DNA of 41,267 bases from Solirubrobacterales bacterium (GTDB taxonomy: Bacteria > Actinomycetota > Thermoleophilia > Solirubrobacterales > JACPNS01), in NCBI GenBank assembly GCA_016185345.1, contig JACPNS010000017.1, positions 1 to 41,267 on the forward strand, in the 5' to 3' direction. The notes below the pieces were generated by a model. It did no database searches. It was not told the origin of the DNA and worked only from the letters and a program-made list of their open reading frames with translations. The position numbers and the translations under genes are program-made. The number at the start of each line of letters is the position of its first letter. The first letter of the stretch is position 1. This document shows positions 22,409-41,267 of this stretch, one piece after another.

Positions 22409-23152
22409 CTACTGCAGCGCATCGACCGCGTCGATGATCGCCTGCGGATCGGAGAGGTCAGTGAGTTCGACCTTCTCTGCAGTGTCCTCGGAGGAACCAA
22501 CGAACACTGTGGGCGTACCCCGGACGCCGTTCTTCGCCGCGACCTCCGCGGCTTCGGCGTTCTGATTGGTGACCTTCGGGTTGTTGCGGTTGGCCCAAGC
22601 CTCGTTTGCGTCGAGACCACCGACCTGGTTCGCGAGACCCTTCACGAATGACTCGGTCGCGTAGTCCTCGGACTCGGGTCCCTGATTCTGGTAGAAGAGG
22701 TCGAGGAATTGAAACATCTTGTTCTGCAGGCCCGTCGCTGCGGCGTAGTTGGCCGCGTTGGACGAATCCCTGCCGCTCGGGCTCGCCCCGTCCAAGATCG
22801 TGAGCGCCCGGAACATCATCTTTGCCTTGCCGGTCTTGATCAGTTCATTCACGATTGTGGGCATCAACTGCTCGTCGAACTCTTTGCAGAAGGGGCAACG
22901 CAAGTCGGCGTACTCGACGATGGTGGCCTTTGCTGCAGGATCACCGAGGGTGATGCCGGTCTGCGGGATGCCGGCGAAGCGAGCGTTCACCTCTTGGGCT
23001 GCCCCGGGGTCTGCTTCCTCGCCACCGCCCTGACCGACGATCACAGCGACCACGACCGCGATCAACGCGAGTCCGAGAACTCCGCCGATGATTGAAATGC
23101 GACGTACGCGCGCGGCCTTCGCCGCGTGCTCGTGCTCCTCGCGTGAATTCAC
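22409..23152 (-). CDS. DsbA-like thiol:disulfide oxidoreductase (thioredoxin_4 fold)
   Basis: This is a 247-aa protein with one N-terminal membrane anchor (about 19-41) and an outside thioredoxin-fold domain. The active site is C86-PFC89 in YADLRCPFCKEF, and the cis-Pro loop is GVRGTPTVFVG. It probably introduces disulfides in exported proteins and is recycled by the VKOR protein encoded next. It starts with GTG at 23152, preceded by GGGAGAGG at good spacing. Confidence 0.93.
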   Translation of the reverse strand: MNSREEHEHAAKAARVRRISIIGGVLGLALIAVVVAVIVGQGGGEEADPGAAQEVNARFAGIPQTGITLGDPAAKATIVEYADLRCPFCKEFDEQLMPTIVNELIKTGKAKMMFRALTILDGASPSGRDSSNAANYAAATGLQNKMFQFLDLFYQNQGPESEDYATESFVKGLANQVGGLDANEAWANRNNPKVTNQNAEAAEVAAKNGVRGTPTVFVGSSEDTAEKVELTDLSDPQAIIDAVDALQ

Positions 23153-26995: not shown

Positions 26996-27664
26996 ATGAC
27001 ACTCCCTTTTCTGACCACCTCGAGCAATCAGATCGGCGGGATCGCCGGCAAGCTGGTGGACCTGATGGAGAGCATCGGCGGCCCCGGTGTCGCGATCGCT
27101 GTCGCTTCCGAGAACCTCTTCCCGCCGATTCCCAGTGAGCTGATCCTTCCGCTCGCCGGATTTACGGCCAGCCAGGCCGACGCGAACATGACGGTCGTCG
27201 GCGCGATTATCTGGGCGACGATCGGCTCGCTCGTCGGCGCGACGGTCCTCTACTACCTCGGCTATGCGATCGGACGCGATCGGGTCCGCGCGATCGTTCT
27301 GAAGATGCCGCTGGTCAAGATCACCGACCTGGACCGCACCGAGGCCTGGTACCTCAAGCACCAGACCAAGTCAGTCTTCTTCGGGCGCATGATTCCGATC
27401 TTTCGCAGCCTGATCTCGATTCCGGCGGGCGTCGAGCGCATGAAGTTCTCGCTGTTTCTGCTCTACACGGCAGCCGGCAGCCTGATCTGGAACACCGCGC
27501 TGATCGTGGCCGGCTACCAGCTCGGCTCGCGCTGGGACGAGGTCCAGAAGTACGTCGGTGCGTTCCAGAAGCTTGTGGTGGTGGCTGTGATCGTGGTTCT
27601 GATCTGGATCGGTTGGTACCTCTACAAGAACCGCGAACGCAAGCCGACCGACGTCGCCGAGTGA
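26996..27664 (+). CDS. DedA family (VTT/SNARE-associated domain) membrane protein
   Basis: This 222-aa protein has the DedA layout: a hydrophobic N-terminal re-entrant region with ENLFPPIPSELILPLAGF, a TM segment, and GRMIPIFRSLISIPAGVERM with the conserved Arg and Gly, then two C-terminal TM segments. DedA proteins include undecaprenyl phosphate and phospholipid translocases; next to uppP, lipid-carrier recycling is an attractive role but remains inference. Its stop overlaps the GTG of the aminotransferase gene (GTGA). Confidence 0.9.
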   Translation: MTLPFLTTSSNQIGGIAGKLVDLMESIGGPGVAIAVASENLFPPIPSELILPLAGFTASQADANMTVVGAIIWATIGSLVGATVLYYLGYAIGRDRVRAIVLKMPLVKITDLDRTEAWYLKHQTKSVFFGRMIPIFRSLISIPAGVERMKFSLFLLYTAAGSLIWNTALIVAGYQLGSRWDEVQKYVGAFQKLVVVAVIVVLIWIGWYLYKNRERKPTDVAE

Positions 27665-28746
27665 TCCCACTCTTTGACACCAGCACGCAGCTCGGGCCGC
27701 TGCGCCCGCAGATCGATGACGCGATCAAGCGCGTGCTTGACAGCGGTCGCTACATCCTTGGTCCAGAGGTCTCCGCCTTCGAAGATGAGTTCGCCGAGTA
27801 CGTCGGCGCCGACCACGCGATCGGAGTCGGCAACGGGACCGACGCGCTCAGCATCGCTCTGCTAGCGGCAGGCGTTGAGGCCGGCGATGACGTTGTCGTT
27901 CCTTCCTTCACCTTCTACGCCAGCGCCGAGGCGGCACTGACGATTGGCGCGAACGTCATCTACTGCGACGTCGACCCGGACACGCTCAACCTCACGGCCG
28001 AGACCGTCGCCGCTGCGCTGACGCCGAACACCACGGCCGTCATTGCCGTCCATCTGTTCGGACTGCCCGCGCCTGTTGACCAGCTGCGGCCGCTCGCCGA
28101 CGAGCACGACTTCAAGATCATCGAGGACGCGGCTCAGGCCGTCGGCGCGACGCTGGGCAGCGAGCGCGCAGGTTCGCTCGGCGACGTCGCGACGTTCAGC
28201 TTCTTCCCGTCGAAGAATCTCGGAGCCTTCGGCGACGCGGGAATCATCACGACCAACGATCCGCAGGTCAACGAGACCGCCCGGCTGCTGCGCCACCACG
28301 GCACGACCAACAAACAGCGGCACACGCTCGTCGGCTACAACTCGCGACTCGATGCGATCCAGGCCGCGCTGCTGCGAGTGCTGCTCCCGCACATCGATCT
28401 CTGGAATCGCGGCCGACAGAAGGCCGCTGCCGCTTACGCCGAGGCTGGCGTTGCCAGATTTGCGCGGCCGCAGCTCGTGCCGGCCGGGGCAGTGTCGGTC
28501 CACCACCTCTATGTCGTGCAACACGACGATCCAGATGATTTGGCCGAGGCGCTTGCTGAGCACGGGGTGGAGGCACGCGGCTACTACCGCACGCCGATCC
28601 ACCGCCAGCCGGCGACCGAGCAAGCGATCGACCTGCCCGCGACCGATCTGGCCGCCGCACGCAACCTCGCGCTACCGATGAGCCCCTCGCTGCGCGAGGA
28701 TCAGGTCCACGCAGTTGTTTCTGCGCTGGAAAAAGCGCACGGGTAG
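27661..28746 (+). CDS. DegT/DnrJ/EryC1 family nucleotide-sugar aminotransferase
   Basis: This is a PLP-dependent fold-type I aminotransferase of 362 aa. The start is the GTG at 27661 (MIPLFDTSTQLGPLRPQID), which overlaps the DedA stop by 4 nt; the longer frame to 27613 is not family-like. Motifs are HAIGVGNGTDALSIALLAAG, VVVPSFTFYASAEA, IEDAAQAVGAT and the PLP-binding Lys185 in FFPSKNLGAFGDAG. Such enzymes aminate keto-sugars on nucleotide carriers. The CapD-like dehydratase downstream could supply the keto-sugar. Confidence 0.94.
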   Translation: MIPLFDTSTQLGPLRPQIDDAIKRVLDSGRYILGPEVSAFEDEFAEYVGADHAIGVGNGTDALSIALLAAGVEAGDDVVVPSFTFYASAEAALTIGANVIYCDVDPDTLNLTAETVAAALTPNTTAVIAVHLFGLPAPVDQLRPLADEHDFKIIEDAAQAVGATLGSERAGSLGDVATFSFFPSKNLGAFGDAGIITTNDPQVNETARLLRHHGTTNKQRHTLVGYNSRLDAIQAALLRVLLPHIDLWNRGRQKAAAAYAEAGVARFARPQLVPAGAVSVHHLYVVQHDDPDDLAEALAEHGVEARGYYRTPIHRQPATEQAIDLPATDLAAARNLALPMSPSLREDQVHAVVSALEKAHG

Positions 28747-29754
28747 ATGAAGGTCTGGGTTGACCTGACCAACTCGCCGCACGTGCTCGTGCTGCGACCG
28801 GTCATTGAAGCCCTGCGCGCCGACGGCCACAAGGTTGAGGTGACCGCGCGCGATTTTGCCCAGACGCTCGCGCTGCTCGATCGGTACGGAATGCCGCACG
28901 CGGCGATTGGCCATCACCGCGGTGGGCACGCAGCCAGCAAGGCCATTGGTTTGTTCTCGCGCTCGGCCGCGCTGCTTCGCTGGTCACGCGGAAAAGACTT
29001 CGATCTTGCGATCGGACATGGCTCGAACGACATCACGGTCGCAGCGAAGTTCCGCAGGATCCCGGCGGTGACGATGTTCGACTACGAATGGGCGAAGGTC
29101 CAGCACGCGATCAACTGCCGCTTCACGGCGCGGACGATCGTCCCGGACGTGATCCCCGAGGAGCGGCTCTATTCGTACGGCGCCAAGGGCAAGATCTTTG
29201 GCTATCCCGGTTTGAAGGAGGAGTACTACCTCTCGGACTTCGAGCCCGATGAGTCGGTGCTTGACGAGCTGGGGCTTGATCGGTCGAAGAAGCTCGTGCT
29301 GCTGCGCACGCCGCCGGATGTTTCGTTGTACCACCGGCTTGAGAACGATCTCTTTCCGCGGCTGATCGAGGTGTTGGCTGCGGATGAGTCGGTGCAGGTT
29401 GTCGCGCTTCCGCGTACGCCCGAGCAGCGCGAGGAGTTGGTCAAGGCCGCGCACTCGAACATTGTGATTCCTGAAGGGGCCGTGGACGGGCCTTCGTTGG
29501 TTGCGCTGGTCGATGCAGTCATCGGCGCGGGGGGCACGATGAACCGGGAGGCCGTCGCGCTCGGCACGCCGGTTTGGACCACGTTCGCCGGTCGCCTCGG
29601 CGCGGTTGATGAAGAGCTCCTCGCCGACGGCCGTTTGAATCGACTGGAAGATCTGGACGGACTCGAAATCGTCAAGCGCTCTGGTGCCGGCAGCGACCGC
29701 ATCCGCCGCGACCCGAAGTTCCTGGCCGATCTCACCCTCGGCGCTGCTCGCTGA
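28747..29754 (+). CDS. DUF354 family protein (GT-B/UDP-GlcNAc 2-epimerase-like)
   Basis: This 335-aa protein starts with the typical DUF354 opening MKVWVDLTNSPHVLVLRPVI. It has TARDFAQT, a YGMPHAAIGHHRGG loop, FDLAIGHGSNDITVAAKFRRIP and VTMFDYEWAK, and in the C-terminal half a donor-site-like AVIGAGGTMNREAVALGTPVWT. The fold resembles GT-B glycosyltransferases and UDP-GlcNAc 2-epimerase. The specific reaction is unknown. Its ATG follows the aminotransferase stop directly (TAG-ATG), so the two are an operon. Confidence 0.88.
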   Translation: MKVWVDLTNSPHVLVLRPVIEALRADGHKVEVTARDFAQTLALLDRYGMPHAAIGHHRGGHAASKAIGLFSRSAALLRWSRGKDFDLAIGHGSNDITVAAKFRRIPAVTMFDYEWAKVQHAINCRFTARTIVPDVIPEERLYSYGAKGKIFGYPGLKEEYYLSDFEPDESVLDELGLDRSKKLVLLRTPPDVSLYHRLENDLFPRLIEVLAADESVQVVALPRTPEQREELVKAAHSNIVIPEGAVDGPSLVALVDAVIGAGGTMNREAVALGTPVWTTFAGRLGAVDEELLADGRLNRLEDLDGLEIVKRSGAGSDRIRRDPKFLADLTLGAAR

Positions 29755-29798
29755 AGCAGCAAGCGCTGCACACTCGGGAAATCCCGCGCGACCCCCCG

Positions 29799-29804
29799 TA
29801 GACT
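29799..29804 (+). promoter_or_regulatory. Candidate -10 (TAGACT) for leaderless CapD-like gene
   Basis: TAGACT ends exactly 7 nt before the ATG at 29812. No Shine-Dalgarno sequence lies in between. Confidence 0.5.
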
Positions 29805-29811
29805 CATCTCC

Positions 29812-31725
29812 ATGCCCGGAGCCCGACTGACCCGCAGGATGCGGCGTTCAGTGATGTTGCATCGCACGCAGCAAATCCTCACTGACGCAGCACTCGTCTC
29901 GATTGCCTTCTTCGGCGCCTTCTGGTTGGTCTTCAACAGCTCGATCCCGGCGCGCGTTGGCGTGGACGGGGTCCCGCCGCGTTATGAGGATCTCTTCTGG
30001 ACCGTTCTGCCCTTTGCAGTTGCCGGCAAGGTCGCCGTCTTCGCGCTCTTTGGCAGCTACTCGAAGTGGTGGCGTTACACCGACTCACACGACTTCCGTC
30101 GCCTGGTCCAGGCCGTCGTTCTGGGCAGCCTTCTGCTCGTGGGTGGCGTGTACCTGGTGCAGCCGGCCGGCATTGCGCTTCCGCGATCAGTTGCGGCCTT
30201 CGACTTCCTACTCACCCTTCTGCTGATCGGTGGCTCGCGCTTTCTCGTGCGCAGCGTCGTCGAGAAACCGATGCGCGGATACAAACTCCCGAGCGGCCGT
30301 GAGATCCTGATCGTCGGCGCCGGCGACGGCGGCCAGATGGTCGCGCGCGAAATGCTCAAGAACCCCGAGCTCGGCGAAACGCCGATCGGCTTCATCGACG
30401 ACGACCCGCGCAAGTCCGGCGCGCGCATGGTTGGCCTAAAAGTTCTCGGCCGCACCAAACAACTTCCGCAGATTCTCGAAGAGGCTGAGCCCGACGAAGT
30501 GATCATCGCGATCCCTTCCGCGCCGGGCTCGCTCAGAGAGAATGTCGTATCGGCCTGCCGTGAGCGCAACATCCCGGTCCGCACCCTGCCGACCGTCTTT
30601 GAGCTCCTGCGCGGCGACGTCAACCTCGTCAAGCAGCTTCGTGAAGTCCAGGTCGAGGACATCCTCGGCCGCGACCCGATCATCATGCAACTCGACCGCA
30701 TGGGCGCATATCTCGCGGGTGAAGTCGTGATGGTCACCGGCGCTGGCGGATCGATCGGCAGCGAGCTCTGCCGCCAGATCGCACGCGTTCGGCCAAGGAA
30801 GATCATCCTCGTTGACCACGCCGAGGACAACCTCTTCAACATTCGCCGCGAGCTGGAAGACGACCGGCACTTCGGCAGCGTCGAGGCGGTGCTCGGGGAC
30901 TGCAAGGACGTCCCGCGCATGCAGCAGATCTTCGAGGAGTTCAAGCCGCAGATCGTCTTCCACGCCGCCGCCTACAAGCACGTGCAGCTGATGCAGGAGA
31001 ACCCCGTCGAGGCGATCCGCAACAACGCGATCGCGACGCGCTCGGTGGCCGAACTCGCCGGACAGGCCGGTGTGCGCCGCTTTGTTCTGGTCAGCACTGA
31101 CAAGGCCGTCAAGCCCAAGACCACGATGGGGGCATCCAAGGCGCTTGCCGAGTGGGCGATCGAGTCGGCGCAGTCGCGCCACGAAGGCACCACTTACTGC
31201 TCGGTGCGATTCGGCAACGTGCTCGGATCGTCTGGATCTGTCGTGCCGATCTTCCGCCGCCAGATCGCAAGCGGCGGCCCGGTCACGGTCACGCACCCCG
31301 AAATGACTCGCTACTTCATGACGATCCCAGAGGCCGTGCAGCTGATCATCCGCGCCGGCGACCTCGGCCACGGCGGTGAAGTCTTCGTGCTCGAGATGGG
31401 CGAGCCCGTGAAGATCATCGACCTCGCGCGCAACATGATCTCGCTCGCCGGGTTGGATCCAGACGTGGACATTCCGATCGTCGTCACCGCGCCATCTCCC
31501 GGCGAAAAGCTGCACGAAGACCTCTACAACCCCGACGAGACTCCGCGGGAAACGAAGGCCGAAAAGATCGTCCGCGCCGAGCGGATGACGATGGACCCGG
31601 CCCGGGTCGAGGAGATCTTTGATGAGGTAGAACGCCTTATGGTCATCGGTAAGCCGCAGGCCCTGGCAGATCTGGTCCAGGCCGCGGCCGGCCTGACCTC
31701 CGAATCCGCGTTACCTGAGTCCTAG
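29812..31725 (+). CDS. CapD/FlaA1-like nucleotide-sugar dehydratase/epimerase
   Basis: This 637-aa membrane protein of the long extended SDR family has four N-terminal TM helices (about 20-150). A CoA-binding-like Rossmann module follows (ILIVGAGDGGQMVAREML, about 165-280). The catalytic SDR domain (from about 300) has VTGAGGSIGSELCRQIARV. The active-site region reads LVSTDKAVKPKTTMGASKALAEW, with Met in place of the usual Tyr of YxxxK, as known for PglF/WbpM-type 4,6-dehydratases. These convert UDP-GlcNAc-type sugars to 4-keto products. Upstream, the DegT aminotransferase could use this product. An aminated deoxy-sugar on a surface glycan is the inferred outcome. Confidence 0.93.
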   Translation: MPGARLTRRMRRSVMLHRTQQILTDAALVSIAFFGAFWLVFNSSIPARVGVDGVPPRYEDLFWTVLPFAVAGKVAVFALFGSYSKWWRYTDSHDFRRLVQAVVLGSLLLVGGVYLVQPAGIALPRSVAAFDFLLTLLLIGGSRFLVRSVVEKPMRGYKLPSGREILIVGAGDGGQMVAREMLKNPELGETPIGFIDDDPRKSGARMVGLKVLGRTKQLPQILEEAEPDEVIIAIPSAPGSLRENVVSACRERNIPVRTLPTVFELLRGDVNLVKQLREVQVEDILGRDPIIMQLDRMGAYLAGEVVMVTGAGGSIGSELCRQIARVRPRKIILVDHAEDNLFNIRRELEDDRHFGSVEAVLGDCKDVPRMQQIFEEFKPQIVFHAAAYKHVQLMQENPVEAIRNNAIATRSVAELAGQAGVRRFVLVSTDKAVKPKTTMGASKALAEWAIESAQSRHEGTTYCSVRFGNVLGSSGSVVPIFRRQIASGGPVTVTHPEMTRYFMTIPEAVQLIIRAGDLGHGGEVFVLEMGEPVKIIDLARNMISLAGLDPDVDIPIVVTAPSPGEKLHEDLYNPDETPRETKAEKIVRAERMTMDPARVEEIFDEVERLMVIGKPQALADLVQAAAGLTSESALPES

Positions 31726-31776
31726 ACTCCAACCTTCGGCAGATGCGCGCCTGCGCGTATCGACCAAAATCGCACT

Positions 31777-33045
31777 GTGGGCGAACTCAAAGACATACTC
31801 CTGAATTTCGGCGCGATCGCCGGCTTTGCCGGTTTGATCGGGCTGGCCGTGCTCTCGATGCTCTACTTCAGCCAGGCGCGCGACGTGCGCAGGTTGCGCG
31901 AGTGGGCAGGCCGCGAGCCCGAGCGCGCCGGAGAGATTGAGCTTCGCGCGCAGCAGATTGCTTCGCAGGCAATTGCGCAGGCTTATGAGTCGATGGCATT
32001 GCGCCAGTCTGAGGCATCGGCTGCCGCCAGCCTTACTCAGGACGCCGGAGTGGAAATCTCTTCCGCGCCATTGGTTGCCGCAGATGCCGGTCAGACCGAG
32101 GTGGCCGAGACAGCGCTCGCGCAGAATGACCCGCAGGAGACGCAGGCGCATGATGTTGTGGCGCACGAGTTTGGCGATGAAGAGTCCTCCGATGAGCGAC
32201 CCGCAGATGCCACCGAGGCCGAAGTGGCAACCGACGCCGGACGCCCGCACGAGCAGAGCGACGAGGTCGCCGAGCACGCGCCGTATGAAGTCGCCGCCGC
32301 GAGCGCCGGAGCCGACGACATGGTCATGCGTCCGGCCCCGTCCGAGGACAACGCCGCCGTACCCGGCGCGCCAGCTGACCCAGATCAAAACCGCTTGACC
32401 CCCTCCACGCCGGCAGCAGCCCGGGCCGCAGCACCGTTGCCCCCGCTTCCGCCGTTGGACACCTCAGAGTTCACGGCCATCCGCACGCCCAACACGCCCC
32501 CGATTCCGGACTACTACCTCTCGACTGGATCCACTGGCTCCGGTCACTTCGAAGCGGTTGATCCGCCGTCGGATCACCGCAGCCGCGTGCCCTTCGCCGT
32601 CGCCGGTGTGCTCGTCGCAGTCTTCGCCGTGATCCTGATTGGCACGCAGCTGATTGGCGGCGGAGATGGACCGAAGACGGCAGACAAGGGCACCCCCGCC
32701 TCGTCGCAAGAAACCAAGAACACGGCAACCAACCGTGACCCGCGCATCAATCGCGCCGCGGTCACCGTCGCTGTTCTGAACGGCACCGACACAGCGGGCA
32801 TAGCCGCCACGGCCGCCACCGGCCTGAACAAGGCCGGCTTCACCGACACCACAACCGGCAACCTCAACGACGGCACCGTGCGCCCGACGAGCATCGTCTA
32901 CTACGCGTCCGGCAGCAAACAGGAGGCGACTGAGGTGGCGAAGGAGTTGGCCGTCAAGGAAGTCGTGCCGGCGAATGATGACGTGCTGGCGGCTGGTGGG
33001 TCTGTGCCGGTGATTGTGGTGCTTGGCGCTAACTTCGGGCAGTAG
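31777..33045 (+). CDS. Membrane protein with C-terminal LytR_C domain
   Basis: This 422-aa protein starts with GTG (MGELKDILLNFGAI). It has one TM segment near the N terminus (about 8-30), then a long acidic Ala/Glu/Asp-rich low-complexity cytoplasmic region to about 265, a second TM (about 272-295, VPFAVAGVLVAVFAVILIG), and a C-terminal LytR_C domain (about 327-420, VTVAVLNGTDTAGIAATAATGLNKAGF, then IVYYASGSKQEATEVAKEL). It lacks the LytR-CpsA-Psr catalytic domain, so it is not a glycopolymer ligase itself. Two TMs place both termini on the same, probably outer, side, or the acidic middle inside. Function is unknown; the neighbours suggest the envelope. Confidence 0.8.
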   Translation: MGELKDILLNFGAIAGFAGLIGLAVLSMLYFSQARDVRRLREWAGREPERAGEIELRAQQIASQAIAQAYESMALRQSEASAAASLTQDAGVEISSAPLVAADAGQTEVAETALAQNDPQETQAHDVVAHEFGDEESSDERPADATEAEVATDAGRPHEQSDEVAEHAPYEVAAASAGADDMVMRPAPSEDNAAVPGAPADPDQNRLTPSTPAAARAAAPLPPLPPLDTSEFTAIRTPNTPPIPDYYLSTGSTGSGHFEAVDPPSDHRSRVPFAVAGVLVAVFAVILIGTQLIGGGDGPKTADKGTPASSQETKNTATNRDPRINRAAVTVAVLNGTDTAGIAATAATGLNKAGFTDTTTGNLNDGTVRPTSIVYYASGSKQEATEVAKELAVKEVVPANDDVLAAGGSVPVIVVLGANFGQ

Positions 33046-33266
33046 CTCGGCGCGCGCGACCGAAAACTTTTCGTTTTCCGCGGTAACCCGTGTGGGTTTC
33101 GTGTATTGTGGCCGCATCAGACCGCCTATACGGGTGTCCTGAATGAACGTAAACTCGGCATAGTGAGCCTATCGGCCGACCATGAAGGCGAATTTATCGG
33201 GCGAGCCTCAATCCCCATCACCCGAACGATCCACTTTATGAAAACCTGTCTCGCTCGGAGGAACTT
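33046..33266. other. 221-nt leader before the giant RHS gene
   Basis: This stretch is AT-richer than its surroundings. It contains a small hairpin (GAAAAC/GTTTTC near 33063-33078) and a second one (AACCC/GGGTT, 33085-33098) followed by TTTCGTG, which together might terminate the LytR_C gene, and a TATTGT hexamer at 33104-33109. No known riboswitch consensus or short gene could be recognised. GGAGG at 33257-33261 serves the downstream ATG. Confidence 0.5.
33257..33261 (+). promoter_or_regulatory. Ribosome binding site of the giant RHS gene
   Basis: GGAGG ends 5 nt before the ATG at 33267. The ATG opens a signal peptide, so this site fixes the start of an otherwise open-ended frame. Confidence 0.75.
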
Positions 33267-36200
33267 ATGGGTTCGCTCGGCAATGGTCACGCCCGTCACG
33301 CCCGTCCCGCTTTCATAGCCGCGTGTGCGTTGGTCGCGGCACTCGGCGCCGGAATCCTGGCCTCGTGGGCCTCGGCGGCTACTACCCCCACAATCACGTT
33401 CATCTCACCGCCTTCAGCAGCGGTGCTCGGCACGACAACGGCAGAACTCGCGTTCGAGACTGCGAACGATCCAACGAGCGTTACCTGCAGGCTTGACTCA
33501 GGCGCCGCAGATGCTTGCACATCGCCGGTCACATACACGACACTCAGCAACGGGTCGCACAGCGTGACCGTTGTCGCGAGGAACACCGCAGGCACGGCGA
33601 CGCTCGCCCGCAGCTTCAAGATCGACACCGTTCCTCCAACGATCTCGATCACGGCCCCGGGCGTGAACGCCACCGTGAAATCGCCCGCACGCTTGGCATT
33701 CACCACTACAGACGCGACTGCGATCGTGGCCCGCTCGTGCAAGGTCGACGATGGAGTGTCGATCCCGTGTGTTTCCGGCACCACCTTTACGTTGGTCGGC
33801 GGCGACCGCACGATTCAGGTCACGGCAACGGACTCAGGCGGCAACGTCGGAAGCTCGTCGGTGAGCTTCGATGTCGCTACGGCCCCAACGCTCGCGATTG
33901 CCTCGCCCGCCGCAAACGCAGTGCTTGGATCCCCCGAAGCGGCGATCACTTTTGAAACAGCCAACGACCCGACGAACGTCACCTGCAAGCTCGACACGGG
34001 AAGCGCAACTGCGTGCTCCTCGCCGATCAACTATGAAGGACTCGCAGACGGCAGCCACACTGTGAGGGTTGTCGCGGCGAATGTCGCTGGAACGACATCG
34101 GTGTCCCGTGCCTTCAAGGTGGATACAACGGCGCCAACCGTGAGCATCACGGCGCCGGTGGCCGGCTCAAGCGTGAAGCCCCCGGCCAGGCTGACGTTCA
34201 CGACGACAGACGCGACGCCAATTCTCACCCGCACGTGTGAGGTCGATGGCGGCGAACCAGCTCCATGTGTTTCGAACGCAACATTCGCCCTGCCAAGCGG
34301 AGACCACGTCATCGAAGTCTCAGCGACAGATACAGCAGGAAATGTCGGCAGCGCCTCCGTAAGTTTCAGCGTCGCGACACTGCCAACCCTCTCAGTGAGC
34401 TCACCAGCCAGCGCCGCTGTTCTTGGATCATCGACGGCGATTGTCGATTTTCAGACCGCCAATGCTCCTACAAGTGTCACCTGCAAGCTCGACACCGGAA
34501 CCGCAACCGCCTGCACTTCTCCGCTCAGCTACGAAGAGCTTTCAGAGGGGAGCCACTCGGTCACCATTGCGGCCTCCAATGTCGCTGGCAAGGCGACGGT
34601 TATGCGTACGTTCAAAGTGGACACGATCTCGCCAACCGTTTCGATTTCGGCGCCGCTCGTGGGTTCGAACATCAAATCACCAGTGCGTGTGACCTTTGCC
34701 AGCACAGATTCGACGCCAGTACTCGCGCGGTCATGCCGAGTCGACAGTGACGCGGCAGCCCCGTGCGTTTCCGGAGCAACGTTCCCGTTGGCGGGCGGAA
34801 ATCACACGATCACGGTCTCAGTCACCGACTCCGCTGCCAATGTCGGGAGCTCCTCAGTCAGCTTCTTTGCTCGTAGCGCTCCCCGGGTCACGATCGCCAC
34901 TCCCGCAGCGGACGCGTTCGTGGGCCCCGGGCCACTTGCGATCAGCTTCTCGGCCACCGAATCGCCGACCACGACCAAATGCAAACTCGACAGCGGCGTC
35001 GCTACTGCCTGCACTTCGCCAAAGACCTACTCCGGCCTTGCGGTAGGTCAGCACAGCATCACGGTGTCGGCCACGAACGCTACGGGCACCGGATCGGCAA
35101 CCGTTTCATTCACGGTTCAGAACTTGCAGGGACAAATCGAGATCGATTCTGGACCCGAAGACGGTTCGATCACCAACTCGCCGATCGCAGAGTTCGCCTT
35201 CACGCTCACGGGGGCCAGCTCCGCGGAGTGCCGAATGAACGAAGAGGACTGGGTGCCTTGTGAGTCACCGTATGTATCCGGATATTTGGACGACAACGTT
35301 CACACCTTCACGGCTCGTCCAAGCAATGACGAGAATCCCGCCGCCTCGGCATCGAGGACGTTCACCGTGGACACATCGCCGCCGAACCTGTGGTGGAACA
35401 GCACGCCAGGGCAATTTGACCCGAGCGATCTGAAGGTCTTCGAGTTCGAGTTCAGCGACAGCACAGCTCCCGTCGAGATTGAATGCGCGCTCGACAATGG
35501 CGCATTTGCACCGTGCAGCTCTCCATACGAAGTCTCCGGTTTGCCAACAGGCGAGCACCGCCTGACCCTTCGCGCCACGGACCCTGTGGGGAATAGGTCT
35601 CAGCTCGTGAGTGGACCGGTCACGTCATACGACCCGGCACACATGATTGAGTTCTCGCCGACTCCGCCCGCCGTCATATCCCCCGCCTCAACTCCGATAT
35701 CGATCTCTAGTTCAGTACCGGTCCCGCGAATTTCTTGCGAGGTCAAGCTGGTGTACGCAGACGGATCACAGTCGTCCCGGACCTACTATCGCTGCCCAGA
35801 AAGCTACGCCCCCGCGATTTGGGATCCGAGTGCTGAAGTGACGATCACGGCGACAGCGTGGAACTGGGCTGGCGCACAGATTGGAGAATCCGGAGTCGTC
35901 GTGTTTGACCTGGATGCTGACGCGCCGCAGGTTGCCATCACCGACAAACCCAATCCGGACGAGCCGTTCAGCTCCCCCTCACAAGAGGTCAACTTCACCT
36001 CGGACGCGACCGACCTAGACCATTTCGAATGCTCGGTGAACGGCGCCCCCGCTTTCGAGTGCGAGTCCCCGTGGACCGCCGAAAACCTTCCGGTTTGTGT
36101 CTCGACGCTCACTGTGTACGCGGTTGATTCTGTCGGAAACCGCGGTCAGGACGACGAGAGCTATTGGAGGCATACAGCTCCGAGCCAGGTTGACACGCGT

Positions 36201-39200
36201 ATCGGCTGCGCGAATCCCCAGATGGGCGGCGGTTGGGGCGAAGCCGGGCCGAGCTTCACTTCATTCTCCACTTTCGTGGACTACCCGAGTGGACCCGATC
36301 TACTCACCAACGCCCTCGTGGAAGATGCGGTCGATCCGCTGGGCGCGACCTTCGTCTGCAAACTTGATGACCGGCCGTGGGCCTGGTGTTTCGGAGCGCG
36401 GGACCGCAAGAACGCGATCTCAAATCCGGGACCACACACACTCCAGGTCGCCACCGAATTTGACGGAGAACGAGACCCGACTCCGGCAAGCGTGAGTTGG
36501 GTATCGACTCAGCCGGCTGCCGAACCGGGCGCGAGCTTCCAGCAGACCCCGCCGCGCGAGGGCGCGGACTCCACTCCATCTGCTCGTTTCTCATCCGATA
36601 CCCCGGGCGCCACGTTCGAGTGCCGACTCGATAGCAGGGCGTGGCTCGAATGCGCGAGCCCGATCGACATCACGACCGACTCAGGTGAGCCGCTCGCCAC
36701 TGGATCGCACACCTTTGAAGTTCGCGCCCAGACCCCTGGTGCAACTCAATCCGAACCGATCAGCACAACCTTCGTAGTCACCGAGTCGCTTCCCACCCCG
36801 ATCATCACCAGCGGCCCCGAGAATGGCGACGATGTGAACGCGCCGATCAGCTATGCGTTCTTCGCGCCAAGCACCTCGTCGACGTTCGTCTGCTCGATCG
36901 ACGGCGGCGAGTACACGCCGTGTGAGTCGCCCATCACCCTTCCCGAGAGCAATCTCGAGCGGCGAACCTTCTCAGTTAGGAGCGTCGCACCAGGCGGTGC
37001 CTTTGGACCTGCGGCGCATAGGTACGTCCATCAAGAAGGCGACCCAGTCCCGGCAGCTGAAGGCTCCGCATTCATCACGAAGGGTCCCGCCGAGTCAACC
37101 ACGCTCGTCGATGGACGTGTTCAGTTCGCGTTCGATTCGAACGACGCGCAGGCGAGCTTCGTTTGCAAGATGGACGAGGCCGAATTCGCGCCCTGTGAAT
37201 CTCCGGTGGACTATGAGCTGGGAGACGGCGCTCATCAGTTTGAGGTCGGAGTAGCGGGAGCGGCGGCTACAACCTCAAGATCCTTCGCCGTTGCCGTTGA
37301 TTATCCCGATTACGGAGGGGTCCGTATCGAATCCGGTCCCGAGACCGGTGGGACGCCTCCGAACTCGATGGCGGAGTTTGGCGCGCCAGAGTTCACCTTC
37401 TACTCAACGATCGATGGTGCCGACCTCGAATGTCGGATCGACGGCGGCGCGTGGACGCCGTGCGAGTCCCCGTACCGCGTTCCGTTGGGTGAAATATCCG
37501 CTGCGGTCGGCGCGCATATATTCGCAGTGCGGATAGCGCGGACTGGCGGCGAAGAAGACCGCGGCACCGAGATGTCCTTCAACCCGGCGAACTACGCGGA
37601 CGCGCAAATCCCAATCTCGATCTACCCAGTCGGGAACGCTGACGGGCTCCCCGAGTGGAAGTCTCTCTCCGACGGCATCGTGGTGAACTCAAGCTCGATC
37701 CAAGTTGCGGCTTATGAGTACGCCAACCCCTATTACGGCAGCCAAGGCCCTTCGGGCTACGCGCTCAAATGCACGGTGGACGACCGGCCGTGGGAGCTCT
37801 GCGGATCAATCTTCACCTCCGAGGGCCTGACGAACGGCACGCACAGAATTGGCATCAGGTCACCCGACGCGCCGGGTCACCGCGGATACACCGAATACCG
37901 CGATTTTGTAGTCGAAGATCCCGATTCGCCAAACCCCAGCCTCCCTACGCCAGTAGTCACGGCCGGACCCGACGGCGAGGCGATCGCGACCGACATCGCA
38001 GAATTCATATTCACTGTTCCGACCGGATACTCAGCCGAGTGCCGAGTAGACGACGACGCCTTTTCGGCGTGCGAATCGCCGTTCTCCACGCCTCCGCTGC
38101 TCGAGGGCGATCACGAGTTCCATGTTCGGGCCGTGTCTGCATCCGGCGAGGTAGGAGTCGAGACTTCACGCGGCTTCTCGTCCCCGGACTCAGAGCTGGC
38201 TGGCGACTACGGCGAAGTCGTGGATCGCGAGGACGGCAACGAGCAAGTGACTGACGAGGCGCTCGAACAAATAAAGCAGCAGGTGATCGATGGCCTGAAC
38301 GCGCCTAACGAGGCTTCAGGGGCAGCGAGCGCGTTCAGCGGAGCGTCGGCGTCTAATTTCGCGGCGACTGAAGCCAGCGTAGACAAGGAGACTATTGCCA
38401 ACTTCCTCCGGTCAGCAGGCGCTTGGCCGACGGCGGAGCAGTTTATGGGGGCAATCGGTGCCATCGGTCGAGAAGAGCCAGTGCAGGTGCGGATCAATCT
38501 CCAGGCGACCTATGAGGACGATCCGGACCCCGAAGAATCAACTCAGCATATGGCGGTCGCCACGCAGGACTTCAACGGCGGGCCCGGTGCGAACTACGCA
38601 GAACAGATAAACGGCGTCAACTATCGGAAGTTGATGATCAGTTGGAACCGCCTAACGAGTGATCCGGCCACGGGCGAAGACCTGTCGGAGCCGCGCATGT
38701 ATACCTACGGCTACGACCTCGGATTCACGGCCGAGTATTGCGACATGGCCTCTTGGTCCTGTCAAGGTGGGACCGGGTATTCGTGGAAGCGTTGGATGTC
38801 GAAGCCGGCCGGATTCGTCTGCAATCCGGTGAACGAATTCGGCATTCTTAATGGAAGCAGCGTGTGGCACAGTGGCTTTGAAGAGTCCTACGCAACCACT
38901 GGAACTGTGGAAACAGTGCTCGACGACGGTATTAGTCGGTGCCAGGATCCGAGCGCTCCATATGTTCTTGTACCCACTGCGCGGATCTATCAGTGGATGA
39001 GCCTGCCTGAGGCTTACGACGCGTTTGCTCGTGGGCTCCGGTTCGAAAACTGCACCAGCACCGGCGGTGTTTGCAGGCAGGTAACGGTTTCGCTCGACGA
39101 CATTGATCGGGAGCGCGCCGCGCGCCTATGCGTACTGCCGCAGTTCCAGGCGATCTGTCAGGTCTATGGCAACAAAGTGAAGCTTGACGGTTTAGGCAAG

Positions 39201-41267
39201 TCCGAGCTGTCAAAGGGGGACCCCGTCAACCCCGCGACCGGAAACTTCGAGCTCACCAAAACGGACCTCGCCGCAACCGGCAAGGGCGGAGAGCTGACCC
39301 TCGCGCGCACATACAACTCGACCGACAAGCGCACCGGTGCGCTCGGCCGCGGTTGGTCGTGGGCAGGCACGGAGGGCTTGGCGAGGCTGAACAATGGCGA
39401 CGCCCGCGTGGCCCAGGTGGACGGCAAAACGTTCGATTTCACGCTTCAATCTGACGGGAGCTTCGACGCGCCGTATGGACACGACGAGACACTGGTGCGA
39501 AATGAAGACGGCACGTACAGCTTAACCGCCCCATATGGCGAGGAGGTCACGAAATACGACCAGTTCGGCCGGGTCATCTACAAGGCAGACAAGAGCGGCA
39601 ATCAGGTCGTTTATCAGCGCGACGGCACGCGGCTGGATGCCCTGATCGGCAGCGGCGGTCAGCGCATCGACTTTGAATACTCAAGCGGTGGCATGCTCGA
39701 ATCGGCCACCGATAGCAACGGCCGCGAAGTGAGCTTCGAGTACGACGATTCGCTGCTCACGGGCGTCAAAAACCCAGAAGAAGCGACGGTCAATTACGAG
39801 TACGACTCGCGGAAATACCTAACTGTGACTTATCAGCCCGATGGCACGTTGGGACTCGTAAACACGTACGACCGGCGCGGACGAGTCCTCACACAGGTCG
39901 TTGGCGAGGATCCGCAAGCAACCTTTGAGTACGGCACTCGCACGACCAAGTACACGGACCCAGCTGGTCGCGTCGAGCTGATTCGCTCCGACCGATACGG
40001 CCGGCCAACTTCGCAGACGAGCGCATTGTCCGGCCGCACGGTCTTCCACCGCGATGCCAGAGGCCGAATTTCATCTCTGGTCCGAGCAGACGGCAAGCGC
40101 ACCACGTTCGAGTACGACTCGCAGGGGCGCCTGATTGAAGAAATAGACCCTGCTGGCAACACCAGCCAGACCGAGTACGACGCCGCGTCGAACGTCGAGT
40201 CAACGACAGATGCGCTTGGCCGCGAGACGACCTACACCTATGGCGAGAACAACGACCTTGAGACCTCGACGGACCCGATGGGATTCACCACCGAGTACGA
40301 GTGGTCAGAGCCCGGAGTGATGGAGTCCTCGACCGACCCGCTCGGACGCACGACTGAGTATGAAAACGACTCCAAGGGCCGGGTCGAGCGCGTGACTGAT
40401 CCGCTCGGCGGAGTCTCTTCGGTCACCTACGACGCGAGCGGATATCTCGCGAGCGCCACAGATGCACTTGGGCGCGAAACGAACTACGAGAACTCTGCGA
40501 TGGGGAATCTGAAGTCAACGACTGACCCTGCGGGCGCCACCACGACAAACGAATATGACGAACTCGGCAACCTCGTCAAGACCACCGATCCGCTTGGGAT
40601 CGAGACGACAACCGCGTTCAGTGCCCCGGGTCGCCCGGTGCAAACAAATGTTGACGGACAGGTGACCTCCAGGGCCGGCTACGACGCGCTCGGCCGCGCC
40701 GCTTGGACGAGCGATGGGCGTGGTGCAACCACGAATTACGCCTACGGCACCGACGGCAACCTCGCCCGCACCGTGAGCCCCGAGCGTTCTACCTCCTCGT
40801 ATCGGTACGACTCGCTCGGCCGCCGAACTGCAGAGATCGATGCGCGCGGCAACATCACGAGGTACGCGTACGACGTCGTCGGAAACGTCACCAAAGTCAC
40901 CGACGCGTCGGGCGCCGAAACCTCATACACCTACGACGCGGTCGGAAACCTGACGAGCGAAGTCAATGCGCTCGGCCAGGTCACAACCTATGAGTACGAC
41001 GACAACGATCGCCTCGAGCGAGAAGTGAAGCCCCTCGGCCTGATCACGGAATTCACCTACGACGCCGCCGGCCAGCTCACATCAAAATCAGTCGCAGGCG
41101 AAACAACATCGTACTTCCGCGACGCCCTCGGCCGCACCACCCGCATCCTGCTCGCCGACGGCAGCGAGCAGCGCTTCGAGTACAACCTCGCCGGCGAACT
41201 GAAAAAGGCAATAAGTGCAAACGTCCAAACCGTCGACTTCACCTACGACGCAGCCGGCCGGATAGAG
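33267..41267 (+). CDS. Giant secreted Ig-like/RHS (YD-repeat) protein, 3' truncated by window edge
   Basis: The frame is open for 2667 codons from the ATG at 33267 to the last base, without a stop. Residues 1-38 form a signal peptide (basic start, AACALVAALGAGILASWASA core and cleavage motif). Residues 39-1649 hold 17 Ig-like modules with an invariant C-x9-C pair (for example TCRLDSGAADAC, ECRIDGGAWTPC) and one irregular Cys-rich module; the first seven form a 166-residue tandem. Residues 1650-1982 are an unrecognised region with several Cys. From 1983 (KGDPVNPATGNFELTKTDL) a DUF6531-type RHS entry domain begins, and from about 2097 YD repeats (EYDSQGRLIEEIDPAGN type) run to the edge. RHS proteins form a shell around a C-terminal, often toxic, domain; that end is not in the window. 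A secreted contact-dependent or adhesive role is inferred. Confidence 0.93.
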   Translation, partial: MGSLGNGHARHARPAFIAACALVAALGAGILASWASAATTPTITFISPPSAAVLGTTTAELAFETANDPTSVTCRLDSGAADACTSPVTYTTLSNGSHSVTVVARNTAGTATLARSFKIDTVPPTISITAPGVNATVKSPARLAFTTTDATAIVARSCKVDDGVSIPCVSGTTFTLVGGDRTIQVTATDSGGNVGSSSVSFDVATAPTLAIASPAANAVLGSPEAAITFETANDPTNVTCKLDTGSATACSSPINYEGLADGSHTVRVVAANVAGTTSVSRAFKVDTTAPTVSITAPVAGSSVKPPARLTFTTTDATPILTRTCEVDGGEPAPCVSNATFALPSGDHVIEVSATDTAGNVGSASVSFSVATLPTLSVSSPASAAVLGSSTAIVDFQTANAPTSVTCKLDTGTATACTSPLSYEELSEGSHSVTIAASNVAGKATVMRTFKVDTISPTVSISAPLVGSNIKSPVRVTFASTDSTPVLARSCRVDSDAAAPCVSGATFPLAGGNHTITVSVTDSAANVGSSSVSFFARSAPRVTIATPAADAFVGPGPLAISFSATESPTTTKCKLDSGVATACTSPKTYSGLAVGQHSITVSATNATGTGSATVSFTVQNLQGQIEIDSGPEDGSITNSPIAEFAFTLTGASSAECRMNEEDWVPCESPYVSGYLDDNVHTFTARPSNDENPAASASRTFTVDTSPPNLWWNSTPGQFDPSDLKVFEFEFSDSTAPVEIECALDNGAFAPCSSPYEVSGLPTGEHRLTLRATDPVGNRSQLVSGPVTSYDPAHMIEFSPTPPAVISPASTPISISSSVPVPRISCEVKLVYADGSQSSRTYYRCPESYAPAIWDPSAEVTITATAWNWAGAQIGESGVVVFDLDADAPQVAITDKPNPDEPFSSPSQEVNFTSDATDLDHFECSVNGAPAFECESPWTAENLPVCVSTLTVYAVDSVGNRGQDDESYWRHTAPSQVDTRIGCANPQMGGGWGEAGPSFTSFSTFVDYPSGPDLLTNALVEDAVDPLGATFVCKLDDRPWAWCFGARDRKNAISNPGPHTLQVATEFDGERDPTPASVSWVSTQPAAEPGASFQQTPPREGADSTPSARFSSDTPGATFECRLDSRAWLECASPIDITTDSGEPLATGSHTFEVRAQTPGATQSEPISTTFVVTESLPTPIITSGPENGDDVNAPISYAFFAPSTSSTFVCSIDGGEYTPCESPITLPESNLERRTFSVRSVAPGGAFGPAAHRYVHQEGDPVPAAEGSAFITKGPAESTTLVDGRVQFAFDSNDAQASFVCKMDEAEFAPCESPVDYELGDGAHQFEVGVAGAAATTSRSFAVAVDYPDYGGVRIESGPETGGTPPNSMAEFGAPEFTFYSTIDGADLECRIDGGAWTPCESPYRVPLGEISAAVGAHIFAVRIARTGGEEDRGTEMSFNPANYADAQIPISIYPVGNADGLPEWKSLSDGIVVNSSSIQVAAYEYANPYYGSQGPSGYALKCTVDDRPWELCGSIFTSEGLTNGTHRIGIRSPDAPGHRGYTEYRDFVVEDPDSPNPSLPTPVVTAGPDGEAIATDIAEFIFTVPTGYSAECRVDDDAFSACESPFSTPPLLEGDHEFHVRAVSASGEVGVETSRGFSSPDSELAGDYGEVVDREDGNEQVTDEALEQIKQQVIDGLNAPNEASGAASAFSGASASNFAATEASVDKETIANFLRSAGAWPTAEQFMGAIGAIGREEPVQVRINLQATYEDDPDPEESTQHMAVATQDFNGGPGANYAEQINGVNYRKLMISWNRLTSDPATGEDLSEPRMYTYGYDLGFTAEYCDMASWSCQGGTGYSWKRWMSKPAGFVCNPVNEFGILNGSSVWHSGFEESYATTGTVETVLDDGISRCQDPSAPYVLVPTARIYQWMSLPEAYDAFARGLRFENCTSTGGVCRQVTVSLDDIDRERAARLCVLPQFQAICQVYGNKVKLDGLGKSELSKGDPVNPATGNFELTKTDLAATGKGGELTLARTYNSTDKRTGALGRGWSWAGTEGLARLNNGDARVAQVDGKTFDFTLQSDGSFDAPYGHDETLVRNEDGTYSLTAPYGEEVTKYDQFGRVIYKADKSGNQVVYQRDGTRLDALIGSGGQRIDFEYSSGGMLESATDSNGREVSFEYDDSLLTGVKNPEEATVNYEYDSRKYLTVTYQPDGTLGLVNTYDRRGRVLTQVVGEDPQATFEYGTRTTKYTDPAGRVELIRSDRYGRPTSQTSALSGRTVFHRDARGRISSLVRADGKRTTFEYDSQGRLIEEIDPAGNTSQTEYDAASNVESTTDALGRETTYTYGENNDLETSTDPMGFTTEYEWSEPGVMESSTDPLGRTTEYENDSKGRVERVTDPLGGVSSVTYDASGYLASATDALGRETNYENSAMGNLKSTTDPAGATTTNEYDELGNLVKTTDPLGIETTTAFSAPGRPVQTNVDGQVTSRAGYDALGRAAWTSDGRGATTNYAYGTDGNLARTVSPERSTSSYRYDSLGRRTAEIDARGNITRYAYDVVGNVTKVTDASGAETSYTYDAVGNLTSEVNALGQVTTYEYDDNDRLEREVKPLGLITEFTYDAAGQLTSKSVAGETTSYFRDALGRTTRILLADGSEQRFEYNLAGELKKAISANVQTVDFTYDAAGRIE
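33381..35126 (+). repeat. Tandem 166-residue (498-nt) repeats, 3.5 copies, in the RHS gene
   Basis: Units begin near 33381, 33879, 34377 and 34875 (last one half). Each consists of an A module (FETANDPT/S-V-TCKLD...CTSP-x-x-Y) and a B module (APTVSITAP...SC-V-D...PCVSG). The landmark Phe codons lie at 33453, 33951, 34449 and 34947, exactly 498 nt apart each time, although the DNA itself has diverged clearly between copies. Confidence 0.85.
39555..41267 (+). repeat. RHS/YD repeat region
   Basis: About 570 residues of degenerate repeats of roughly 20 residues with the pattern G-R-x-x-x-x-T/x-D-P/A-x-G-x-x-T-x-Y-x-Y-D (for instance TDPLGRTTEYENDSKGRVER). This is the typical beta-shell-forming YD signature of RHS proteins. 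The array continues past the right edge of the window. Confidence 0.9.

What the first reader, a model, noticed from the sequence alone, without database searches (positions are those of the whole stretch)
33267..41267. Giant secreted protein joining C-x9-C Ig-like modules to an RHS shell
One frame of at least 2667 codons combines a signal peptide, 18 Ig-like modules, an unknown region, a DUF6531-type entry domain and YD repeats. RHS and wapA-type proteins are established carriers of C-terminal toxins; a long disulfide-paired Ig stalk in front of the shell in an actinobacterium would be a distinct layout for presenting such a payload. The C terminus and any immunity gene are outside the window.
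Basis: partly seen in the sequence, partly recalled or inferred. Interest (0 to 1): 0.7.

Follow-up and report, generated by a model that had tools for sequence, protein, structure and literature searches.

The report
Ig-stalked RHS surface protein, end missing
A soil-type actinobacterium encodes a giant secreted protein with a long stalk of disulfide-type Ig modules carrying a hollow RHS "cocoon" of the kind that usually packages a toxin; the general layout is already known, only this particular stalk is unusual, and the toxin end is cut off by the end of the contig.

Summary
One frame from ATG 33267 (good ribosome site) runs 2667 codons to the contig end without a stop. It has a Sec-type signal peptide, 17 C-x9-C Ig modules plus one divergent module (17 motifs against 0.9 expected), an orphan 344-residue region, DUF6531 and 13 RHS repeats. 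AlphaFold2 gives an Ig-like pair (pLDDT 95) and an RHS cocoon (pLDDT mostly above 90), whose best solved matches are T6SS Rhs cocoons. It is most likely a WapA/RHS-type polymorphic-toxin carrier on a long stalk, but the RHS core, payload and immunity gene lie beyond the contig and were not found in the genome. The "distinct layout" claim is weak: bacterial teneurin-like proteins with Ig-like stalks are published, and in the same phylum I found Big_7 Ig repeats running straight into DUF6531 and RHS repeats (G499, G580). C-x9-C modules are a common surface building block of this genus (128 matches in this genome). What is unusual is the long C-x9-C array on an RHS shell: 17 modules here, at most 2 in 85 other RHS frames. 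The verdict is a new member of a known kind, of modest interest.

The parts
33257..33261 (+). Ribosome-binding site GGAGG, 5 nt before the ATG
   Evidence: Read from the sequence
33267..41267 (+). Giant gene, 2667 codons, open at the contig end (no stop)
   Evidence: ORF list; contig length equals window length
33267..33377 (+). Sec-type signal peptide, residues 1-37 (basic n-region, hydrophobic core, ASA|A)
   Evidence: Read from the translation; no signal predictor available
33384..38180 (+). Stalk of 18 Ig-like modules, residues 40-1638: 17 with C-x9-C, module 10 (790-887) with C-x18-C
   Evidence: Cysteine map and shuffles, module alignment, Big_13 and OmpL47-type hits, profile, AlphaFold2 model of modules 3-4, pLDDT 95
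33384..34877 (+). Modules 1-6 in A-B-A-B-A-B order: tandem duplication of a 166-residue two-module unit
   Evidence: A-A identity 55-61%, B-B 56-63%, A-B 24-35%; A and B clades with support 0.99 and 1.0
38184..39215 (+). Orphan region, residues 1640-1983, 8 Cys; no family, no solved relative, not modelled with confidence
39216..39440 (+). DUF6531 (PF20148), residues 1984-2058, start of the shell
   Evidence: E 1e-15; 2.3e-17 in the genome search
39441..41267 (+). YD/RHS shell, incomplete; 13 RHS repeats; no RHS core motif reached
   Evidence: PF05593 E 6e-65, TIGR01643; AlphaFold2 pLDDT mostly >90; Foldseek to Rhs cocoons

Best explanation
A Sec-exported, WapA/RHS-type surface protein. The 18-module Ig stalk holds the RHS cocoon away from the cell, past wall and glycan. 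The cocoon, opening with DUF6531, encloses a C-terminal payload that is released after self-cleavage at the RHS core and acts on a neighbouring cell. Shown: signal-like N terminus, Ig stalk, DUF6531, cocoon fold. Inferred: disulfide pairing in each module, surface display, cocoon closure, self-cleavage, payload and immunity gene. The stalk was probably recruited from the large Ig-module repertoire of this genus and lengthened at its N-terminal side by tandem duplication.
For: Architecture from Pfam and NCBIfam. Shell relatives in solved structures are Rhs toxins (7q97 E 6e-49, Tse5, RhsP, Tse15, Tre23). The Foldseek matches to the model are Rhs cocoons (8qja, TM 0.59, rmsd 3.2). Ig pair model pLDDT 95, matching SiiE and other adhesin stalks. 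Complete relatives continue with an RHS core and a variable C-terminal tail: G100 (35% identical shell, 3396 aa), G003, G004, and many others with different tails. N-terminal stalks differ between relatives, as reported for teneurin-like polymorphic toxins (PMC13018210). Stalk modules interleave in a tree with those of other giant proteins of the same genome.
Against: The RHS core, payload and immunity gene were not seen for this gene. The region between stalk and shell is orphan and unmodelled. No cell-wall anchor was identified. Disulfide pairing was not measured (no coordinates or Cys distances were available).
Confidence: 0.62

Rival explanations
1. A giant adhesin or surface-structure protein in which the RHS shell is only a large folded head, with no active toxin.
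For: The genome is rich in giant Ig-module proteins without an RHS shell, e.g. a 3562-aa frame with 33 C-x9-C modules. Some relatives end shortly after the core with no recognisable toxin, e.g. G004's 148-residue tail (tails were not searched against toxin families).
Against: RHS cocoons with known function enclose a C-terminal effector; tails of relatives differ from one protein to the next.
Confidence: 0.2
2. A broken or decaying rhs gene: the frame stops or rearranges just beyond the contig end.
For: The same genome holds rhs debris at both ends of contig C7: a 3' fragment with an RHS core downstream of a transposase fragment, and a short YD fragment running off the contig. The PF20148 search and the RHS-core search each find only one match in the genome, on different contigs.
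Against: 2667 codons are open with even GC3 and no stops; the shell is predicted with high confidence up to the last residues. C7's RHS core fragment is 61% identical to another rhs gene of genus-mate G004 and hits this gene's shell relatives only weakly, so it is not this gene's end.
Confidence: 0.12
3. A teneurin-like protein in the strict sense (Ig stalk, TTR, FN-plug, NHL propeller, YD shell).
For: Ig repeats upstream of a YD shell; sequence match to the solved bacterial TLP (9ifo/9pt5, E 1.7e-21).
Against: No NHL, FN-plug or TTR match in Pfam at E<=1; the shell starts with DUF6531; T6SS Rhs structures match far better than the TLP.
Confidence: 0.03
4. Assembly chimera joining an Ig gene to an rhs gene.
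For: Draft assembly with repeats on both sides; no reads available.
Against: No N, one frame throughout, even GC3; same-type fusions occur in independent genomes (G100, G499, G580).
Confidence: 0.03

Closest known systems
WapA / secreted RHS polymorphic toxins of Gram-positive bacteria (e.g. Streptococcus suis WapA, PMC12704120)
   Same: Signal-peptide-led, giant, variable N-terminal part, RHS/YD shell; DUF6531 is mentioned in that paper
   Different: The N-terminal part here is an 18-module Ig stalk, with no LysM or other wall-binding domain found; C-terminal toxin and immunity gene not observed
Bacterial teneurin-like proteins (PMC5851990, PMC6425310, PMC13018210)
   Same: N-terminal bacterial Ig-like or other beta-sandwich repeats in front of a YD shell; variable adhesion domains at the N terminus
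   Different: No TTR, FN-plug or NHL; the shell opens with DUF6531
G499:C22 and G580:C38 proteins (same phylum)
   Same: Signal-like N terminus, Ig repeats directly followed by DUF6531 and RHS repeats; G499 is complete with RHS core and C-terminal tail
   Different: Big_7 modules, cysteine-poor (4 Cys in each whole frame), not C-x9-C modules
G100:C13 / JAFDWH010000021.1 protein, 3396 aa (same order)
   Same: C-x9-C Ig modules, DUF6531, YD repeats, RHS core; shell 35% identical
   Different: Only 2 C-x9-C modules; most of the stalk is right-handed beta-helix, plus CARDB
T6SS Rhs effectors (RhsA, Tse5, RhsP, Tre23)
   Same: Cocoon fold
   Different: Those ride a T6SS (PAAR/VgrG, general knowledge); here a signal peptide and Ig stalk

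Membership tests
RHS/YD-repeat family | Tandem YD/RHS repeats forming a beta-cocoon | tested here: met
   13 repeats; model and Foldseek
RHS/YD-repeat family | RHS repeat-associated core (self-cleavage region) | not testable with these tools
   Contig ends first; the only core in the genome belongs to another rhs gene fragment
WapA-type secreted RHS polymorphic toxin | Sec signal peptide at the N terminus | tested here: inconclusive
   Clear by eye; no predictor available
WapA-type secreted RHS polymorphic toxin | DUF6531 at the start of the shell | tested here: met
   PF20148 at 1984-2058
WapA-type secreted RHS polymorphic toxin | N-terminal cell-wall binding domain | tested here: inconclusive
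   No known anchor in Pfam hits; Ig stalk and an orphan region instead
WapA-type secreted RHS polymorphic toxin | Variable C-terminal toxin and adjacent immunity gene | not testable with these tools
   Outside the assembly
Teneurin-like protein (TLP) | FN-plug + NHL propeller + YD shell | tested here: not met
   No FN-plug or NHL hit at E<=1; only 344 residues lie between stalk and DUF6531
Bacterial Ig-like (Big_13 / C-x9-C) module family | Ig-like beta-sandwich of about 84 residues with C-x9-C | tested here: met
   Big_13 E 1e-16; 17 profile hits; AlphaFold2 pLDDT 95

The most novel reading that the evidence does not exclude
A contact-dependent toxin carrier whose reach is set by a tandem-duplicating stalk of disulfide-type Ig modules drawn from a genus-wide pool of such modules, with a new 344-residue cysteine-containing adaptor between stalk and cocoon; stalk length and surface partner would then vary by module exchange with the other giant Ig proteins of the cell.
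Probability: 0.2. Interest if true: 0.5.

Novelty: new member of a known kind. Interest (0 to 1): 0.27.

Why it matters
It adds one more N-terminal stalk type to the secreted RHS proteins and shows that Solirubrobacterales, poorly studied soil bacteria, place RHS cocoons on very different stalks (C-x9-C Ig, PKD/DUF11, IPT, beta-helix, lectin-like). If the payload proves toxic, the long array of similar module pairs offers a natural test of whether stalk length sets killing range.

Tried and rejected
Extension of the contig: window and contig end together, and the last 25 bases occur nowhere else in the genome. The RHS core on C7 was rejected as this gene's end because it is 61% identical to G004's rhs. 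The YD fragment at the left end of C7 was rejected because its upstream side runs into an unrelated gene region. A genome-collection scan with residues 1640-2060 found nothing; a second with an alignment of DUF6531 and the first repeats found 33 relatives, none with a comparable C-x9-C array. TRF found no DNA-level tandem repeats, so the module duplication is old enough to be visible only in protein. The structure of 1640-1983 could not be predicted (pLDDT mostly <50, no homologues), so no fold is claimed for it. A strict teneurin-like assignment was rejected.

Full report
Observation. The frame 33267-41267 (+) is open for 2667 codons from an ATG with a GGAGG five bases upstream. The window is a whole contig, C17 of a 2.43 Mb draft genome of 22 contigs, so the gene is cut by the contig end. 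Residues 1-37 read as a Sec signal peptide. Residues 40-1638 hold cysteine pairs spaced C-x9-C, 17 of them against 0.88 expected and at most 5 in 2000 shuffles; a C-x18-C pair marks a divergent tenth module. Pfam gives Big_13, DUF6531 at 1984-2058 and 13 RHS repeats; NCBIfam gives 13 YD repeats and OmpL47-type Ig-like hits.

Stalk. Alignment shows that modules 1-6 alternate between two types, A-B-A-B-A-B, with 55-63% identity within and 24-35% between types, so a 166-residue pair was duplicated in tandem; modules 8-18 are much more diverged. AlphaFold2 on modules 3-4, aligned with other module pairs of the same protein, gives two all-beta domains, mean pLDDT 95. Foldseek places them with adhesin stalk domains such as SiiE, fibronectin-type modules and the grappling-hook protein GhpA. 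The cysteines are placed where a hairpin disulfide is plausible, but no distances were available, so the bond is inferred.

The module is common here. A profile of the modules finds 128 matches in this genome and 61-141 in its four genus-mates. Other giant frames include one of 3562 residues with 33 C-x9-C motifs. In a tree of 98 modules from this genome, those of the window do not form one group: A and B types do (support 0.99 and 1.0), while module 7 and several later ones sit among modules of other proteins. The stalk therefore draws on a shared repertoire.

Shell. A model of residues 1640-2667 with 23 relatives gives pLDDT mostly above 90 from residue 1985 on, apart from a poorly aligned stretch near 2446-2485, as a continuous series of beta-hairpins. 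The best solved matches are T6SS Rhs cocoons, up to TM 0.59 and rmsd 3.2 over 725 columns; by sequence, RhsA 7q97 at E 6e-49. Residues 1640-1983 match no family, no solved structure and no relative apart from the last few residues next to DUF6531, and were not modelled with confidence (pLDDT mostly below 50).

Missing end. The RHS core is not in the window. The only core in the genome lies at the right end of C7, downstream of a transposase fragment; it is 61% identical to a different rhs gene in genus-mate G004. A 69-residue YD-bearing fragment runs off the left end of C7. Neither continues this gene. Judged by G100, whose shell is 35% identical, roughly 330 residues of shell and a tail are missing.

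Relatives. DUF6531 occurs in 62 of 399 genomes of the class and 69 of 396 of the phylum. Complete relatives carry an RHS core followed by tails that differ from one protein to the next, as expected for polymorphic toxins. Their stalks differ too: PKD and DUF11 (G003), IPT and carboxypeptidase-regulatory domains (G087), CARDB, Big_13 and beta-helix (G100), LamG and AIR9-type Ig (G157), beta-helix (G246, G291, G576), and Big_7 Ig repeats running into DUF6531 and RHS repeats (G499, G580; also Big_7 in G497). Among 85 distinct RHS frames, chosen with a bias to long ones, a profile of the window's modules found at most 3 domains (2 with C-x9-C, G100) outside the window, which has 17.

Comparison with the literature. 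Bacterial Ig-like domains in front of YD shells were reported for a Bacillus subtilis teneurin-like protein (PMC5851990), extended to many phyla with varied beta-sandwich repeats (PMC6425310), and solved structurally in 2026 with diverse N-terminal adhesion domains and polymorphic C termini (PMC13018210). Bacterial Ig domains near RHS repeats were noted in 2012 (PMC3482391). WapA-type export by Sec with an N-terminal wall-binding part is described in Streptococcus suis (PMC12704120). This protein lacks FN-plug and NHL and is therefore not a teneurin-like protein by that definition; it fits the DUF6531/WapA type as far as it can be read.

Verdict. The distinctive points are the long C-x9-C array and the orphan region. 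Interest is modest, and the decisive datum, the C terminus, is not in the assembly.

Noticed in passing
G000:C16 (L156:2-10690): A frame of at least 3562 residues with 33 C-x9-C Ig modules and no RHS shell, followed by a 2508-residue frame with 8 more: giant Ig surface proteins are a feature of this genome.
   Followed up: partly
G000:C7 right end (L003:7874-10035): Integrase-core transposase fragment followed by a truncated rhs 3' end with an RHS core, 61% identical to an rhs of genus-mate G004.
   Followed up: partly
G000:C7 left end (L030:1-207, minus strand): Short YD-repeat fragment running off the contig, upstream side not rhs: orphan rhs debris or displaced cassette.
   Followed up: partly
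window 22409-23152 (-): Thioredoxin/DsbA-like protein about 10 kb from the cysteine-rich giant gene; a possible disulfide-forming helper, with no evidence of a link.
   Followed up: no
window 27613-33045 (+): DegT aminotransferase, DUF354, Polysacc_synt_2 and LytR_C genes just upstream: a surface-glycan neighbourhood.
   Followed up: no
L159:5197-10356 (Streptomyces sp. AD2-2 plasmid CP106747.1): An RHS frame of 1719 residues with 19 YD motifs, with no gene listed over most of it in the plasmid table (which is incomplete).
   Followed up: no
L032 and L086 C termini: Two rhs proteins from different genomes of the order end in similar tails (..RVSIQGETWIYRAYQFAEGRINVGTYYKP / ..RTMVDGETIEYRAYTLPDGTINVGTYYVAS) on quite different stalks, as expected for exchanged payload domains.
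   Followed up: no
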